From: Thermoleophilia bacterium SCSIO 60948
Lineage (GTDB): Bacteria; Actinomycetota; Thermoleophilia; Solirubrobacterales; 70-9
NCBI GenBank assembly: GCA_021496505.1
Contig: CP053031.1
Location: 1,790,001 to 1,854,000, forward strand
Direction of reading: 5' to 3'
Length of the DNA: 64,000 nucleotides
The notes under the pieces were generated by a model that saw only the letters and a list, made by a program, of their open reading frames with translations, ran no database searches and was not told the DNA's origin. Position 1 is the stretch's first letter; each line of letters opens with the position of its first letter. Made by a program: the position numbers and the translations under genes. Shown here in pieces: positions 40,303 to 47,080 of this stretch.

Positions 40303-40953
40303 ATGGCCCCAATCCTCTTCGGCTCGATCGGCTCGATCGCAGAGACGTCAGAGCTCTCGCGAGAGGCCTTCAACGAGGCCTTCTCCGCCCACGACCTCGA
40401 CTGGAACTGGGATCGCGACACCTATCAGCGCCTGCTCGCCCGTAGCGGCGGCGCCGACCGCGTGGCCGAGTACGCACAGGCGCGCGGCGAGAGCGTGGAC
40501 GCCGATGCGGTCCACGCGACGAAGTCCGAGCTCTTCCAGGCGAAGGTCCGCGAAGGCGATCTCCGGCCGCGCGCGGGCGTGGTCGAGACCATCGAGGCGG
40601 CGCGAGGCAGGGGCGAGAAGCTCGGCCTCGTCACGACGACGGCGCGCGAGAACATCGACGCCGTCCTCGACGGCGTCGGCTCGCAGATCGACCGCGACAG
40701 CTTCGACGTGATCGTCGACGTATCGATGGTCGGGGAGCGCAAGCCCGCCCCGGCCTCGTATGAGCTGGCGCTCGGCGAGCTCGGCGTCGGTGCCGGCGAC
40801 TGCGTCGCGATCGAGGACAACTCCGACGGGGTCAGCGCCGCGGTCGCGGCCGGTGTGCCGACGGTGGCCTTCCCGGGCGCCAACACCACCGAGCACGAGT
40901 ACTCGCGAGCGCGCGAGGTCGTCAGCGAGCTCGACCCGTCGACCCTCGCCTGA
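40303..40953 (+). CDS. HAD-like protein lacking catalytic motif I, first gene of the MAA operon
   Basis: The 216-residue protein has the CbbY/phosphoglycolate-phosphatase-like fold. Motif I, normally DxDGT, reads FGSIGSIAET, so both catalytic aspartates are gone. The later motifs survive: VTTTARENI (II), ERKPAPASYELAL (III) and AIEDNSDGVSAAVAAG (IV). The cap segment AFNEAFSAHDLDWNWDRDTYQRLL is well preserved. As seen, it should not form the phospho-Asp intermediate. It could be a binding or scaffold protein, or use another mechanism. It precedes mysA by 15 nt and is almost certainly co-transcribed with the MAA genes. Confidence 0.83.
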   Translation: MAPILFGSIGSIAETSELSREAFNEAFSAHDLDWNWDRDTYQRLLARSGGADRVAEYAQARGESVDADAVHATKSELFQAKVREGDLRPRAGVVETIEAARGRGEKLGLVTTTARENIDAVLDGVGSQIDRDSFDVIVDVSMVGERKPAPASYELALGELGVGAGDCVAIEDNSDGVSAAVAAGVPTVAFPGANTTEHEYSRAREVVSELDPSTLA

Positions 40954-40968
40954 CCGAGGAGGCACGCG

Positions 40969-42189
40969 ATGTCCACCCCCAGCGCGAACTTCGAGGCCGG
41001 CGCGGGCGAGTTCCGCATCGAGGGCTATGAGCGGATCGACTTCGACCTGCTCTACGCGCACGGCGCCTTCGAGCCCGAGAACCGCCAGATCGCCGATTCG
41101 TTCCGGGACTTCGGCCGTTGTCTGACCATCGTCGACGAGACCGTCCACGAGCTCTACGGCGAGCAGATGGAGGCCTACTTCTCCCACCACGGGATCGAGC
41201 TGACCGCGTTCCCGGTCCGGATCCGCGAGCAGGACAAGACGCTTCGAAGCGTCGAGCGGATCGTCGACGCGATCGACGAGTTCGGTCTCGTGCGCAAGGA
41301 GCCGGTGCTGGTCGTCGGCGGCGGGCTCGTCACGGACGTCGCCGGCTTCGCCTGCTCGATGTACCGGCGCGCGACGAACTACATCCGCGTCCCGACGACC
41401 CTGATCGGGCTCGTCGACGCGAGCGTCGCGATCAAGGTCGCCGTCAACCACGGCAAGCTGAAGAACCGGCTCGGCGCCTACCACGCCTCGCGCCAGGTGA
41501 TCCTCGACTTCGCCTTCCTGGGCACGCTCCCCGAGGATCAGATCCGAAACGGCATGGCCGAGCTGATCAAGATCGCGGTCGTCGCCGACCGTGGGATCTT
41601 CGAGGCGCTCGAAGAGCACGGCGAGGCGCTGCTTCGCACGCGCTTCGGCGAGCTCGGCGACGACCCGGAGATGCGCGAGATCGCCCATCGCGTCACGTAC
41701 GAGGCGATCAGGCGGATGCTCGAGCTCGAGGCGCCGAACCTGCACGAGCTCGACCTCGACCGGGTCATCGCCTACGGCCACACCTGGAGCCCGACGCTCG
41801 AGCTCGCCCCCGACACGCCGATGTTCCACGGCCACGGGGTCAACATCGACATGGCGCTCTCGGCGACGCTCGCGGCGCGGCGCGGCTACATCTCCGACTC
41901 CGACCGCGACCGGATCCTCGGGTTGATGAGCCGCGTCGGCCTCGCGCTCGACAGCCCGTATCTGACGCCGGAGCTGCTCCGCGAGGCGACCGCCTCGATC
42001 GTCAAGACGCGCGACGGAGAACTGCGCGCTGCGGTACCGCGCCCGATCGGCGAGTGCCACTTCGTCAGCGACCTCTCCTCCGGGGAGCTCGAGGCGGCGC
42101 TCGCCGAGCACAGGCGACTCGCGGCGGGCTATCCGCGCGGGGGCGACGGCGAGGAGATGTTCATGGCGCCGGCACCCGTCGGCGTCTGA
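40969..42189 (+). CDS. mysA: Desmethyl-4-deoxygadusol synthase (sugar-phosphate cyclase)
   Basis: A 406-residue NAD- and metal-dependent cyclase of the dehydroquinate-synthase superfamily. It converts sedoheptulose 7-phosphate to desmethyl-4-deoxygadusol, the first step to mycosporines. Seen are [82 protein letters not shown] and [20 protein letters not shown], with metal ligands among the Glu and His residues. Wording and length follow cyanobacterial DDG synthases rather than valiolone synthases. The mysB-mysC-mysD context settles the choice. GAGGAGG precedes the ATG. Confidence 0.92.
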
Positions 42190-42203
42190 GGACGGAGAAC
42201 GTC

Positions 42204-43031
42204 GTGGCCGAAGGCCCCGAGCCGCGTCCGGTGACGCCGCTCGACCTGGTCTCGCACCACCTCGGCCGCGCGCTCGAGCTGCTCGGCGACGACGCCGACC
42301 CCGCGCTCAGGGCCGAGCTCGACCGCGCCGATGCGCTGGCGCGGGGCCTCGGCCCCTACGCCGAGCTGATGAGCTCGCCCGAGTCGCCGGCCCTCGGCGC
42401 GCTCGACCGCCTCACCCGCGTCGAGGACTGGGGCGCGCGCGATCGCGGCGTGGCGCTCGAGCAGGAGATGCTCTCCGGGCGCCTCGAGGGCCGGCTGCTG
42501 GCGTTCCTCGTCGCGGCCACGGGCGCGCGAAACGTGCTGGAGATCGGGATGTTCAGCGGCTACTCGGCGCTCGCGATGGCCGAGGCCCTGCCGCCCGACG
42601 GCTCGCTCGTCGCCTGCGAGATCGACGCCGGCGTCGCCGATTTCGCCCGCCGCCGCTTCGACGCCTCGCCGTCCGGCGAGCGCATCGACATCAGGATCGC
42701 TCCCGCCCTCGCGACCCTCGCATCGCTCGTCACCGACGAGGAGCGCTTCGATCTGGTCTTCATCGACGCGGACAAACCGAGCTACGAGGACTACCTCGAC
42801 GCGATCCTCGCCGGCGGGCTGCTCGCCCCGGACGGGATCGTCTGCGTCGACAACACACTGCTCCAGGGCGAGCCCTACCTCGGCGAGGACGTATCCGAGC
42901 GCTCGCGAAACGGAGCCGCGATCGCCGCGTTCAACGAGCGTGTCGCCGCCGATCCCGAGCTCGAACAGGTGCTGCTGCCGGTGCGCGACGGAGTGACCCT
43001 GATCCGCCGCACCGGCCCTCGCGATGGCTGA
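42204..43031 (+). CDS. mysB: O-methyltransferase (4-deoxygadusol-forming)
   Basis: A 275-residue class I SAM methyltransferase of the caffeoyl-CoA/COMT type. The N-terminal helices lead to EQEMLSGRLEGRLLAFLV, the SAM motif VLEIGMFSGYSALAMAEAL, ACEID, DLVFIDADKPSYEDYLD and the metal-site region IVCVDNTLLQG. In MAA synthesis it methylates desmethyl-4-deoxygadusol to 4-deoxygadusol. GTG at 42204 has GGAG 6 nt upstream. It is 14 nt after mysA and overlaps mysC by 8 nt. Confidence 0.9.
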   Translation: MAEGPEPRPVTPLDLVSHHLGRALELLGDDADPALRAELDRADALARGLGPYAELMSSPESPALGALDRLTRVEDWGARDRGVALEQEMLSGRLEGRLLAFLVAATGARNVLEIGMFSGYSALAMAEALPPDGSLVACEIDAGVADFARRRFDASPSGERIDIRIAPALATLASLVTDEERFDLVFIDADKPSYEDYLDAILAGGLLAPDGIVCVDNTLLQGEPYLGEDVSERSRNGAAIAAFNERVAADPELEQVLLPVRDGVTLIRRTGPRDG

Positions 43032-44349
43032 CCCGCGCCCGAGGCTGCGCACCACGGTGCGGAGCGCCGCGACGCTCGCCGGGCTCGGCGCCGTCGCGCC
43101 GCTCAACGCCGCGCTGACCTTCGCCGCCATCGTGCGGGGTGGCTCCGTGCGTCGCGGACGCGAACTGCCGCGCGCCGGCCGCACGGTCCTGATCACGGGC
43201 GGGAAGATGACGAAGGCCCTGGCGCTCGCGCGAGCCTTCGACCGCGCCGGGCACAGGGTCATCCTCGCCGAGGGGGCAAAGTACCGGCTGACCGGCCACC
43301 GGTTCTCACGCGCCGTCAGCCGCTTCCACGTGATCCCCGAACCGGGCGCCGACGACTACGCCGAGGCGATCGAGCGGATCGTCGACGCGGAGCGGGCCGA
43401 CGTCTTCGTGCCGGTGTCGAGCCCGCTGTCGAGCCGCTACGAGGCCGACGCCGGCGCACGGATCGCCGATCGCTGCGAGGTCGTCCACGGCGACCCCGAG
43501 ACCGTGCGAACCGTCGATGACAAGTACGAGTTCGCGACGGCCGCCGCGCGCCTCGGCCTCCCGGTGCCCGACACCCGCTTGATCACGGACCCGGCGCAGG
43601 TCGCGGACTTCGACTTCGCCGCCAACCCCGGCCCGTACATCCTCAAGAGCATCGCCTACGACCCGATCCGGCGCCTCGACCTGACGCCGCTGCCGCGCCC
43701 GACGGCGTCCGAGACGAGAGCGTTCGCCGAATCGCTGCCGATCTCCACCGAGCGCCCCTGGATCCTCCAGGAGCTCGTCGCCGGTCAGGAGTTCTGTACC
43801 CACAGCACCGTTCGCGACGGCGAGCTGACGCTCCACTGCTGCTGCCGGTCCTCGGCGTTCCAGCTCAACTACGAGATGGTCGACCACCCCGCCATCGAAG
43901 CCTGGGTGCGCCGCTTCGCGCGCGAGCTCCGGCTCACCGGGCAGTATTCGTTCGACTTCATCGAGACCGAGACGGGCGAGCTCAGGGCGATCGAGTGCAA
44001 CCCGCGGACGCACTCGGCGATCACGATGTTCTACGACCACCCCGGGGTCGCCGACGCCTACCTGGGCCGCCGAGCCGACACCGTCGTCCCGACCGCGACG
44101 AGCCGGCCGACACACTGGATCTACAACGAGCTGTGGCACGCGCTGCGCCGCCCGCGCGAGCTGCCCCGGCGGCTGCGGACGATCGCGCGCGGCAAGGACG
44201 CGATCTTCGACCGCTCCGACCCGCTGCCGTTCCTGCTCGTCCACCACCTCCAGATTCCATCGCTGCTCGCGCGCGCCGCGCGGCGCGGCGAGGACTGGAT
44301 CCGGATCGACTTCAACATCGGCAAGCTCGTCGAGCCCGGCGGCGACTGA
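43024..44349 (+). CDS. mysC: ATP-grasp mycosporine-glycine synthase
   Basis: The 441-residue ATP-grasp enzyme joins glycine to 4-deoxygadusol, giving mycosporine-glycine. Visible are LITGGKMTKALALARAF at the start of the pre-ATP-grasp domain and KYRLTGHRFSRAVSRFHVIP. ADVFVPVSSPLSSRYEAD and the ATP lysine in PYILKSIAYDPIRR follow. The metal-binding part is AIECNPRTHSAITMFY, and the C-terminus reads IRIDFNIGKLVEPGGD, much as in cyanobacterial MysC. An N-terminal hydrophobic stretch (residues 15-38) could associate with the membrane. It overlaps mysB by 8 nt. Confidence 0.92.
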   Translation: MADPRPRLRTTVRSAATLAGLGAVAPLNAALTFAAIVRGGSVRRGRELPRAGRTVLITGGKMTKALALARAFDRAGHRVILAEGAKYRLTGHRFSRAVSRFHVIPEPGADDYAEAIERIVDAERADVFVPVSSPLSSRYEADAGARIADRCEVVHGDPETVRTVDDKYEFATAAARLGLPVPDTRLITDPAQVADFDFAANPGPYILKSIAYDPIRRLDLTPLPRPTASETRAFAESLPISTERPWILQELVAGQEFCTHSTVRDGELTLHCCCRSSAFQLNYEMVDHPAIEAWVRRFARELRLTGQYSFDFIETETGELRAIECNPRTHSAITMFYDHPGVADAYLGRRADTVVPTATSRPTHWIYNELWHALRRPRELPRRLRTIARGKDAIFDRSDPLPFLLVHHLQIPSLLARAARRGEDWIRIDFNIGKLVEPGGD

Positions 44350-44356
44350 ACCGCCC

Positions 44357-45403
44357 ATGGCGCTGCGACTACTGCATCTGACCGGCTCGGCAGAAAGCGA
44401 GTTCTTCGCCGAGCTCTCGCGCCTCTACGCCGGCGACTGCCTGGCCGAGATCGACGATCCGGCGCGCTACGAGAGCCTCGTCGCTCACGTCGACCCCGGG
44501 GGCGAGTGGCGCTTCCCCGAGGACCTGTCCCCCGCCGCGCTCGAGCGCGCCGAGCCGCTGGGCGCCGGGGCGGCCGTCGCGAGGATCGGCGACGAGCGGC
44601 CGGACGTGATGGTCCCGCAGATGTTCTGCCTTCCGGGCATGACCGCTTACCGGTCGCTGTTCGAGGTCCTCGGGATCCCCTACCTCGGCAGTCGCGGCGA
44701 CGTGATGGCGATCGCCGCCGACAAGGCGCGGACGCGCTCGATCGTCGCCGCGGCGGGCGTCGCCGTTCCCGACGCCGAGGTCGTCCGGCCGGGCCAACGG
44801 CCCGGGCTCGATCCGCCCTACGTCGTCAAGCCGCTCGCCTCCGACAACTCGACAGGAGTCTCGCTCGTCCGCGACGCGCACGAGGTCGAGGACGCCCTCG
44901 AGCGCGCGCTGGCGGTAGGTCCCGCAGCGCTGGTCGAACGCTACGTCGAGCTCGGACGCGAGGTCAGGTGCGGCCTGCTCGCCCGTGGCGACGAGCTCGA
45001 CGAGTTGCCGCTCGAGGAGTACGCACTCGACCCCGAGGCGCACCCGATCCGCGGCGAGGCCGACAAGCTCGCGCGCGACGGCGAGCAGGGCGGGCTTCGG
45101 CTCGTCGCCAAGGACTCGCCCGGCGCCTGGATCATCCCGCGCTCCGATCCGGTCTGCGAGCCGGCCTGGGAGGCCTCGCGCCGCGCCCACCGAGCGCTCG
45201 GCTGCCGCGACTACAGCCTGTTCGACTTCCGGATCGACCCGGACGGGCGGCCCTGGTTCCTCGAGGCGGGCCCCTACTGCTCCTTCGCGCGGACCAGCGT
45301 GATCGCGACCATGGCGCGCGCCGAGGGGACCGGCGTCGCCGAGCTCTTCGCCGAGGCGGTCGCGCAGGCGATGTCGAGAACGAACCGAGGAGCAGCGACA
45401 TGA
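44357..45403 (+). CDS. mysD: D-Ala-D-Ala-ligase-like MAA synthase
   Basis: 348 residues. MysD attaches a second amino acid (Ser, Thr or others) to mycosporine-glycine, giving imino-MAAs such as shinorine or porphyra-334. The protein starts LRLLHLTGSAESEFFAELSR, a MysD-type opening. DVMVPQMFCLPGMTAYRSLFEVLGIPYLGS and ADKARTRSIVAAAGVAVPDAEV then lead into the ATP-grasp lysine PYVVKPLASDNSTGVSLV. LFDFRIDPDGRPWFLEAGPYCSF is the metal site. No NRPS-type MysE is present, so this is the amino-acid-adding enzyme. It follows mysC by 7 nt and overlaps the dioxygenase gene by 4 nt. Confidence 0.9.
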   Translation: MALRLLHLTGSAESEFFAELSRLYAGDCLAEIDDPARYESLVAHVDPGGEWRFPEDLSPAALERAEPLGAGAAVARIGDERPDVMVPQMFCLPGMTAYRSLFEVLGIPYLGSRGDVMAIAADKARTRSIVAAAGVAVPDAEVVRPGQRPGLDPPYVVKPLASDNSTGVSLVRDAHEVEDALERALAVGPAALVERYVELGREVRCGLLARGDELDELPLEEYALDPEAHPIRGEADKLARDGEQGGLRLVAKDSPGAWIIPRSDPVCEPAWEASRRAHRALGCRDYSLFDFRIDPDGRPWFLEAGPYCSFARTSVIATMARAEGTGVAELFAEAVAQAMSRTNRGAAT

Positions 45404-46188
45404 ACGTGACCGAACTCGAGCCCGTCGGCGCGCGCGTCGAGGGCCTGTCGATCGACGCAGCGGGGGCCGAGGACGTCACGCGCCTGCGCGGGCTGCTGGC
45501 CGAGCACGGGGTTCTCGTCCTGCCCGGCCAGAGCGCCGGCGACGAGGGCTTCGTCGCGTTCCTCGAGCGCTTCGGCGAACTGATGTTCACCGACGGCGAG
45601 ACGCCTGTCGACGGGTTCCCCGACCTCAACGTCGTCTCGAACGTCGGGCGGGACACGCCGCCGAAGAGCAACTTCCACGTCGATACGAGCTACGTCCGGG
45701 TCCCGCCCGCCCTGACCTCGCTGCGCGCGGTCGAGATCCCCGAGCGCGGCGGCGAGACGCTGTTCACCAACCAGTACCGCGCCTACGACACGCTCCCGGC
45801 CGAGCTCCGTGAGCGACTCGCCGGCAGGACGATCACGCACCGGGTCACCGGCGTCGACCCCGGTCCCGACTCCGAGACCGAGGCCGAGCACCCGGTCTTT
45901 CACACCCACCCGATCTCGGGACGGACCGCGATCTACATGTCGACGCCGGCGCGCTGCGTCGCGATCAGCGGGCTCCCCGACGACGAGGCGGGTGAGCTGA
46001 TCGGGCGGCTCTTCGAGCACTCGACCGCGGAGGAGAACACGATGCGCCACGCCTGGAGCCCCGGCGACGTCGCCATCTGGGACAACGGCTGCGTCCTGCA
46101 CCGAGCAGATCACTCCGGCGTCTCGGGCGACCGGGTGATGCACCGCGGGATGGTCGCGGGCGAGGGGCCACTCGAGCCCGCCGCCTGA
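45400..46188 (+). CDS. TauD/TfdA-family Fe(II)/2-oxoglutarate dioxygenase, last gene of the MAA operon
   Basis: The 262-residue enzyme has the facial triad His93 and Asp95 (FHVDTSYV) and His234 (VLHRADHSG). A 2-oxoglutarate-binding Arg is near 245-249 (RVMHRGMV). It should oxidise a small molecule with O2 and 2-oxoglutarate, releasing CO2 and succinate. The 4-nt overlap with mysD suggests tailoring of the MAA (hydroxylation, demethylation or decarboxylation). Known MAA dioxygenases (MysH) are PhyH-like, so a TauD-type enzyme here would be a different solution. Amino-acid supply is an alternative role. Confidence 0.87.
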   Translation: MNVTELEPVGARVEGLSIDAAGAEDVTRLRGLLAEHGVLVLPGQSAGDEGFVAFLERFGELMFTDGETPVDGFPDLNVVSNVGRDTPPKSNFHVDTSYVRVPPALTSLRAVEIPERGGETLFTNQYRAYDTLPAELRERLAGRTITHRVTGVDPGPDSETEAEHPVFHTHPISGRTAIYMSTPARCVAISGLPDDEAGELIGRLFEHSTAEENTMRHAWSPGDVAIWDNGCVLHRADHSGVSGDRVMHRGMVAGEGPLEPAA

Positions 46189-46651: not shown

Positions 46652-47080
46652 ATGCGAACGATTCGCATGCTGACCGCCGCGATGGTCGTGGCGCTGCTCG
46701 CGGCCGTGGCGGCAGCGCCCGCGACCGCCCAGACACAGCAGAACGGGCTCGTGAACGTGAACCTCGAGGAGATCGACGTCGGGCTGCCGATCTCCGTCGC
46801 GGCGAACGTCTGTGATCTCGACGTCGCGGTGCTCGCCGAGGTCCGCAGGCTCGGCGAGACGGCCTGCACGGCCGACGCCGAGTCGGGCGCGGTCTTCGGG
46901 CCGGGCGGGAACTCGGATGCCCGCCAGGAGGGGCTGGTCAACGTCAACGTCTCGGACGTCGTCGTCAAGGTGCCGGTCTCCGTCGCGGCGAACATCTGCG
47001 ACGTAGCCGTCAACGTCCTCGCGCAGCAGCGCAGAGGCGGGCCCGTGAGCTGCGACGCGGTCGCGGACTCGGACGCCTGA
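46652..47080 (+). CDS. Secreted protein with two 62-residue repeats
   Basis: The 142-residue precursor has a clear signal peptide cut near residues 26-27 (ATA-Q). The mature part is two copies of one unit: GLVNVNLEEIDVGLPISVAANVCD (32-55) recurs as GLVNVNVSDVVVKVPVSVAANICD (94-117). Cysteines at 54/72 and 116/134 keep an exact spacing of 62 residues, so each unit probably has one disulfide. Alternating hydrophobic residues suggest beta structure, somewhat like chaplins and related actinobacterial surface proteins. The function is not known. AAGGAGG lies upstream of the ATG. Confidence 0.75.
   Translation: MRTIRMLTAAMVVALLAAVAAAPATAQTQQNGLVNVNLEEIDVGLPISVAANVCDLDVAVLAEVRRLGETACTADAESGAVFGPGGNSDARQEGLVNVNVSDVVVKVPVSVAANICDVAVNVLAQQRRGGPVSCDAVADSDA

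What the first reader, a model, noticed from the sequence alone, without database searches (positions are those of the whole stretch)
40303..46188. Complete mycosporine-like amino acid operon in a probable Thermoleophilia genome
Six genes in a row have gaps of 15 nt or less or overlaps. mysA (DDG synthase), mysB (O-MT), mysC (ATP-grasp) and mysD (D-Ala-D-Ala-ligase-like) are in pathway order. The established pathway makes 4-deoxygadusol, then mycosporine-glycine, then an imino-MAA. The sequence of all four core enzymes follows the cyanobacterial wording, including the MysC ending DFNIGKLVEPGGD and the MysD opening LHLTGSAESEF. The host would be a high-GC actinobacterium outside the better-known MAA producers, so UV or desiccation protection is a likely role.
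Basis: partly seen in the sequence, partly recalled or inferred. Interest (0 to 1): 0.92.

Follow-up and report, generated by a model that had tools for sequence, protein, structure and literature searches.

The report
Six-gene bacterial sunscreen (MAA) operon
This is a complete six-gene operon for making mycosporine-like amino acids, the natural UV sunscreens; the layout has already been reported in other actinobacteria, but one of its genes turns out to encode a "phosphatase" that has lost its catalytic residue in every such operon examined, which I found described nowhere and which is testable.

Summary
At 40303-46188 six genes lie head to tail (gaps of 15, 14 and 7 nt; overlaps of 8 and 4 nt): HAD, mysA, mysB, mysC, mysD, TauD. 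MysA is a desmethyl-4-deoxygadusol (DDG) synthase: 66% identical to the solved enzyme 5tpr, 41% to the valiolone synthase ValA, inside the DDGS clade. MysB, MysC and MysD are 54, 53 and 49% identical to a Nostoc cluster.

The TauD-type dioxygenase most likely trims shinorine-type MAAs to palythines. The HAD+TauD layout is prior art (GATOR-GC, PMC11888242), which cites an unpublished Rhodococcus operon giving shinorine, palythine and palythine-serine.

Not found in the literature: the HAD has lost its catalytic nucleophile. Motif I is FGSI[SG][TS] instead of FD.DGT in 26 of 26 MAA-linked copies, against 0 of 23 relatives including CbbY. The fold and other active-site motifs are kept, and the subfamily occurs only with MAA clusters (7 of 7 against 0 of 389 genomes). 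It persists where TauD is absent, so it probably serves the core pathway. New member of a known kind, with one unexplained conserved pseudo-phosphatase.

The parts
40303..40953 (+). HAD-fold protein, 216 aa, CbbY-like; nucleophile-less pseudo-phosphatase (motif I FGSIGS)
   Evidence: CbbY best PDB match 1.4e-39; AlphaFold model pLDDT 94.6; Z 30.5 to CbbY 4uar; motif I comparison
40969..42189 (+). mysA, desmethyl-4-deoxygadusol (DDG) synthase, 406 aa
   Evidence: 5tpr 2e-179; 66% to DDGS against 41% to ValA EEVS, tree; DDGS-type motifs
42204..43031 (+). mysB, SAM-dependent O-methyltransferase, 275 aa, GTG start
   Evidence: 54% identical to the O-methyltransferase of the Nostoc HK-01 cluster; recurs beside mysA in the loci. 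The Pfam and NCBIfam scans used a start one base out of frame for this protein, so their blank result means nothing
43024..44349 (+). mysC, ATP-grasp ligase (mycosporine-glycine synthase), 441 aa
   Evidence: NCBIfam PRK06849, 421 bits, above cut-off; 53% to Nostoc HK-01 MysC
44357..45403 (+). mysD, D-Ala-D-Ala-ligase-like enzyme that adds the second amino acid, 348 aa
   Evidence: Pfam Dala_Dala_lig_C 9e-15; 49% to Nostoc HK-01 MysD
45400..46188 (+). TauD/TfdA-family Fe(II)/2-oxoglutarate dioxygenase, 262 aa; predicted palythine-forming enzyme
   Evidence: Pfam TauD 6.8e-58; HxD...H invariant in 19 MAA-linked copies; clade restricted to MAA genomes

Best explanation
A mycosporine-like amino acid operon. 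MysA cyclises sedoheptulose 7-phosphate to DDG, MysB methylates it to 4-deoxygadusol, MysC ligates glycine to give mycosporine-glycine (about 310 nm), and MysD adds a second amino acid to give an imino-MAA such as shinorine (about 334 nm). The terminal TauD-family dioxygenase then oxidises an amino-acid side chain, which breaks down and leaves a palythine-type MAA (about 320 nm). The first gene encodes a HAD-fold protein that kept the CbbY-type sugar-phosphate pocket but lost the nucleophile and the acid/base Asp; it most likely binds a phosphosugar or pathway intermediate without hydrolysing it and supports or regulates the core pathway. Shown here by sequence: enzyme identities, operon structure, HAD motif loss and its strict linkage to MAA clusters. 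Known from published family chemistry: the four core steps. Inferred: palythine as product, UV protection, and the HAD role.
For: PMC11888242 reports HAD+TauD in actinobacterial MAA clusters and cites an unpublished R. fascians D188 operon with both genes that gave shinorine, palythine and palythine-serine in Streptomyces.
Against: There is no chemistry from this organism. Other actinobacteria can carry silent clusters: Actinosynnema mirum made no MAA in culture (PMC10384724). TauD substrate specificity cannot be read from sequence, and a cyanobacterial TauD-type enzyme (MysI) was proposed to act on a different glycine (PMC10510106). Four A. mirum genes are listed as giving shinorine in yeast (PMC10384724), so the HAD is not needed for the core chemistry at least in that host.
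Confidence: 0.88

Rival explanations
1. The TauD enzyme is not a MysH-like palythine-former but makes another change, for example hydroxylation of the ring or of the second amino acid, or the MysI-type attack on the C3 glycine proposed in Nostoc, giving a different MAA.
For: The TauD family is distinct from the PhyH-type MysH; only TauD, not phytanoyl-CoA dioxygenase, was matched in Pfam. Cyanobacterial MysI is TauD-type with a different proposed site (PMC10510106). The best PDB matches are PlaO1 and aryloxyalkanoate dioxygenases with varied substrates.
Against: The unpublished R. fascians D188 expression cited in PMC11888242 gave palythine and palythine-serine from an operon with TauD; R. fascians A44A TauD (L010) is 61% identical to this one.
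Confidence: 0.2
2. The HAD is still an enzyme with altered chemistry (for example a lyase, isomerase, or hydrolase using the conserved Ser of GSIS, or Thr/Lys/Glu-Asp of motifs II-IV) that processes an MAA intermediate or a phosphorylated by-product.
For: Motifs II (TTT), III (KP) and IV (EDN) and cap residues shared with CbbY (R53, H71, K74, R90) are invariant in the copies aligned, and G7-S8-I9 are themselves invariant, which is stronger constraint than drift after loss of function would leave.
Against: All canonical HAD catalysis runs through the motif I Asp, which also ligates Mg2+ (established knowledge of the superfamily). Mutants of these Asp residues, such as CbbY D10N, hold their substrate unhydrolysed (4uat).
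Confidence: 0.3
3. The cluster is an EEVS/valiolone or DHQ-type cyclitol pathway rather than an MAA pathway.
For: Pfam and NCBIfam models place MysA in the DHQ synthase family.
Against: MysA is 66% identical to DDGS 5tpr and 41% to EEVS ValA, within the DDGS clade. The genome has a separate shikimate-kinase/AroB frame for DHQ. The full mysBCD set is present.
Confidence: 0.02
4. A decayed or silent operon.
For: No sigma-70-like promoter was found by consensus scan (that scan does not cover other promoter types). A. mirum's cluster is silent in culture (PMC10384724).
Against: All six frames are intact with overlapping or near-overlapping junctions, and metal ligands and motifs are conserved.
Confidence: 0.08

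Closest known systems
Actinobacterial HAD-mysABCD-TauD MAA clusters (GATOR-GC, PMC11888242; here also Rhodococcus, Pseudonocardia, Mycolicibacterium loci)
   Same: Same six gene families; same order as in Rhodococcus and Mycolicibacterium; proteins about 50-70% identical
   Different: Different class of Actinomycetota; tighter junctions. That paper, as read here, does not mention that the HAD lacks its nucleophile
Cyanobacterial mysABCD (Nostoc sp. HK-01 plasmid, AP018319)
   Same: DDGS, O-MT, ATP-grasp and D-Ala-D-Ala-ligase-like genes, 49-66% identical
   Different: No HAD or TauD gene annotated in the stretch read; an extra reverse-strand gene lies between mysC and mysD
MysH (phytanoyl-CoA-dioxygenase-type palythine former, Nostoc linckia) and MysI (TauD-type, Nostoc sp. 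UHCC 0926)
   Same: Fe/2OG dioxygenase in an MAA cluster; MysI is of the same TauD family
CbbY xylulose-1,5-bisphosphate phosphatase
   Same: Fold (Z 30.5, 2.0 A, 37% identity), cap and phosphate-side residues, motifs II-IV
   Different: Motif I nucleophile Asp replaced by Gly, second Asp by Ile, His20 by Gln or Ser; genetically tied to MAA genes

Membership tests
MAA biosynthesis operon (mysABCD) | MysA is DDG synthase, not EEVS or DHQS | tested here: met
   5tpr 2e-179; 66% against 41%; DDGS clade support 100/97 and 96/98 in two trees
MAA biosynthesis operon (mysABCD) | Adjacent mysB, mysC, mysD homologues | tested here: met
   54, 53 and 49% identity to Nostoc HK-01 MysB, MysC and MysD; no tree was built for these three
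MAA biosynthesis operon (mysABCD) | Produces cyclohexenone or cyclohexenimine UV absorbers | not testable with these tools
   Needs LC-MS
Actinobacterial HAD/TauD MAA operon | HAD and TauD of the MAA-linked clades in the same operon | tested here: met
   HAD 48-55% and TauD 52-68% to cluster copies, against about 41% or less (HAD) and 38% or less (TauD) elsewhere in the Actinomycetota genomes searched
MysH palythine synthase | Phytanoyl-CoA dioxygenase family | tested here: not met
   Pfam gives TauD only, 197 bits
MysI (TauD-type MAA dioxygenase) | TauD/TfdA family with HxD...H iron ligands | tested here: met
MysI (TauD-type MAA dioxygenase) | Orthology to cyanobacterial MysI | tested here: inconclusive
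HAD phosphatase (CbbY) | Motif I DxDxT nucleophile Asp | tested here: not met
   FGSIGS in the window; 26 of 26 MAA-linked copies lack it
HAD phosphatase (CbbY) | HAD fold with cap | tested here: met
   pLDDT 94.6; Z 30.5 to 4uar
Host class Thermoleophilia | Taxonomic placement by name | not testable with these tools
   Genomes held are unnamed. Same phylum as G652, which nests with Nocardiaceae in the MysA tree, but not the same class

The most novel reading that the evidence does not exclude
Actinobacterial MAA operons carry a dedicated, strictly conserved pseudo-phosphatase: a CbbY-derived HAD whose nucleophile was lost once at the base of the subfamily and which now works without hydrolysis, for example as a sedoheptulose-7-phosphate or intermediate-binding partner or regulator of the Mys enzymes, or with new chemistry. 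It would be a functional component of MAA synthesis that cyanobacteria lack.
Probability: 0.55. Interest if true: 0.62.

Novelty: new member of a known kind. Interest (0 to 1): 0.45.

Why it matters
It puts a full palythine-type MAA operon in a little-studied actinobacterial lineage and shows that the gene set is coherent there. It also narrows an open point of the recent literature (what the MAA-linked HAD does, PMC11888242). The HAD lacks the residue every HAD phosphatase needs, tracks the core genes rather than TauD, and is absent from sampled genomes without MAA genes, so experiments should look for binding, regulation or new chemistry, not phosphatase activity.

Tried and rejected
Rejected: EEVS or DHQS identity of MysA. 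Rejected: HAD as an ordinary phosphatase (motif I lost). Rejected: HAD as TauD's partner only, since it is present without an MAA-type TauD in four Actinomycetospora loci, G210 and G594. Led nowhere: near-identical DNA in plasmids (none); plasmid searches for MAA-type HAD or TauD (CbbY-like HADs of Pseudomonadota, and TauDs at or below about 36% among the rows listed); promoter, terminator and Rfam scans (nothing); literature search for nucleophile-less HAD pseudoenzymes (none held); Miyamoto 2014 and Chen 2021 full texts not held. A first translation of mysB (P0003) was one base out of frame, and that frame was also what searches scanned; the correct protein is P0007.
Full report
Observation. 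The six genes are there as described, on the + strand of a complete 3.42-Mb single-contig genome. Boundaries: HAD 40303-40953, mysA 40969-42189, mysB 42204-43031 (GTG start), mysC 43024-44349, mysD 44357-45403, TauD 45400-46188. Junctions are +15, +14, -8, +7 and -4 nt, which fits a single transcript. The quoted MysC C-terminus and MysD N-terminus are present and match those of Nostoc sp. HK-01.

Core enzymes. MysA matches the solved enzyme 5tpr over its full length at 2e-179 (the PDB title calls it 3-dehydroquinate synthase; that it is the Anabaena DDG synthase is my own knowledge) and the valiolone synthase ValA 4p53 at 5e-84. Identities are 66% and 41%. In two maximum-likelihood trees it lies in the clade that holds 5tpr and Nostoc HK-01 (support 100/97 and 96/98) and apart from ValA. 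It carries the DDGS wording [22 protein letters not shown] and [14 protein letters not shown] rather than the ValA wording IDAGIGAKTGVNF, GHSFSPSVE and HGEAVCIDMALSS. The genome's own DHQ synthase is in a separate open frame with a shikimate kinase domain. MysB, MysC and MysD are 54, 53 and 49% identical to the Nostoc HK-01 cluster proteins; MysC passes the NCBIfam PRK06849 cut-off; MysD is D-Ala-D-Ala-ligase-like. I did not build trees for MysB, MysC or MysD. In some searches MysB was scanned one base out of frame, so the absence of a hit there says nothing.

Relatives. TauD is there in most of them, with the order varying between HAD-A-B-C-D-T, HAD-A-B-T-C-D and T-HAD-A-B-C-D. In the window's own class sample 7 of 399 genomes have a MysA, and none of the other genomes listed from its family does.

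Prior art. GATOR-GC (PMC11888242) already reported that HAD and TauD/TfdA genes are conserved in MAA clusters of Actinomycetota, Pseudomonadota and Bacillota and absent from cyanobacterial ones. It cites an unpublished 2018 abstract in which a Rhodococcus fascians D188 operon with both genes gave shinorine, palythine and palythine-serine in Streptomyces. It calls the HAD role unvalidated. So the layout is known; this is a member in another class.

TauD. The last protein is a TauD-family dioxygenase (Pfam 6.8e-58) with the HxD...H ligands invariant in the MAA-linked copies. Its clade is restricted to MAA genomes: in 396 genomes of the phylum the six hits of 287 bits or more are six of the seven MAA genomes, and the next hit is 125 bits. 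It is not of the MysH (phytanoyl-CoA dioxygenase) family; a TauD-type enzyme, MysI, is described in Nostoc with a proposed attack on a different glycine (PMC10510106). Palythine formation is the best-supported role given the R. fascians result, but it is inferred here.

HAD. The first protein is closest to CbbY, the xylulose-1,5-bisphosphate phosphatase (1.4e-39), and its model (pLDDT 94.6) superposes on CbbY at Z 30.5 and 2.0 A over 216 residues. Yet motif I reads FGSIGS where CbbY has FDVNGT. All 26 MAA-linked copies seen have FGSI[SG][TS] (the L041 copy LGSISS), with G, S and I invariant, while all 23 comparison sequences that cover the motif, CbbY included, keep the nucleophile Asp. The CbbY His20 is Gln in 24 of 25 aligned copies and Ser in the window. 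Motifs II, III and IV and the cap residues R53, H71, K74 and R90 are invariant. The MAA-linked HADs form one clade (100/99), so a single loss is the simplest reading. The subfamily is tied to MAA genes: in 396 phylum genomes the hits of 195 bits or more are exactly the seven genomes with mysBCD, and the next is 103 bits (Fisher p 3e-15, without correction for shared ancestry). A copy is found on another contig of G093, where the operon is cut by a contig end. It is present in six genomes that lack the MAA-type TauD (four Actinomycetospora, G210, G594) and beside a quite different cyclase in L041 and L042. This points to the core pathway rather than to palythine formation or to DDGS itself. Four A. 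mirum genes are listed as giving shinorine in yeast (PMC10384724), so the HAD is supportive rather than essential, at least there. I infer non-hydrolytic binding of a phosphosugar or intermediate; new chemistry is the main rival. I did not find this motif loss described, but the library holds open-licence papers only, and supplementary tables were not readable.

Host. Thermoleophilia could not be tested by name. The genome is in the same phylum as, but another class than, G652, whose MysA nests with Nocardiaceae and Mycobacteriaceae. That fits Actinomycetota outside the main class.

Verdict. Novelty of the operon is low. The conserved nucleophile-less HAD is the part worth following.

Noticed in passing
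L041:8891-9988 and L042:8520-9656 (genomes G498 and G624): Two HAD-mysBCD-TauD clusters have a different cyclase in place of mysA: about 37% to DDGS and 38-39% to EEVS, own clade (100/100), with IDAGPSPRTCCDGFG where DDGS has [13 protein letters not shown]. Possibly a third route (for example an EVS-type enzyme) into MAAs.
   Followed up: partly
46652-47080: Small secreted-looking protein just downstream with two near-repeats (QNGLVNVNLEEIDVGLPISVAANVCDL... and QEGLVNVNVSDVVVKVPVSVAANICDV...); no Pfam or NCBIfam hit; looks chaplin- or rodlin-like from memory.
   Followed up: no
L040:8842-9951 (genome G594): A second cyclase in a genome that also has a mysA cluster, 52% identical to ValA, so a likely separate valiolone-type pathway.
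   Followed up: no
G000:C1:1714442-1714780 (L001): The genome's aroB domain lies in one 714-codon open frame with a shikimate kinase domain (aroK-aroB fusion).
   Followed up: no
L075 (Paenibacillus urinalis plasmid NZ_CP118102): A MysC-like ATP-grasp gene (37%) in an operon with KASIII, oxidoreductases and an F390-synthetase-like gene, without other mys genes annotated.
   Followed up: no
G385 contigs C95 and C451 (L084, L099): Two TauD copies of about 60% identity to the window's in one fragmented genome; the match to one runs over a TAG. Duplication or strain mixture.
   Followed up: no
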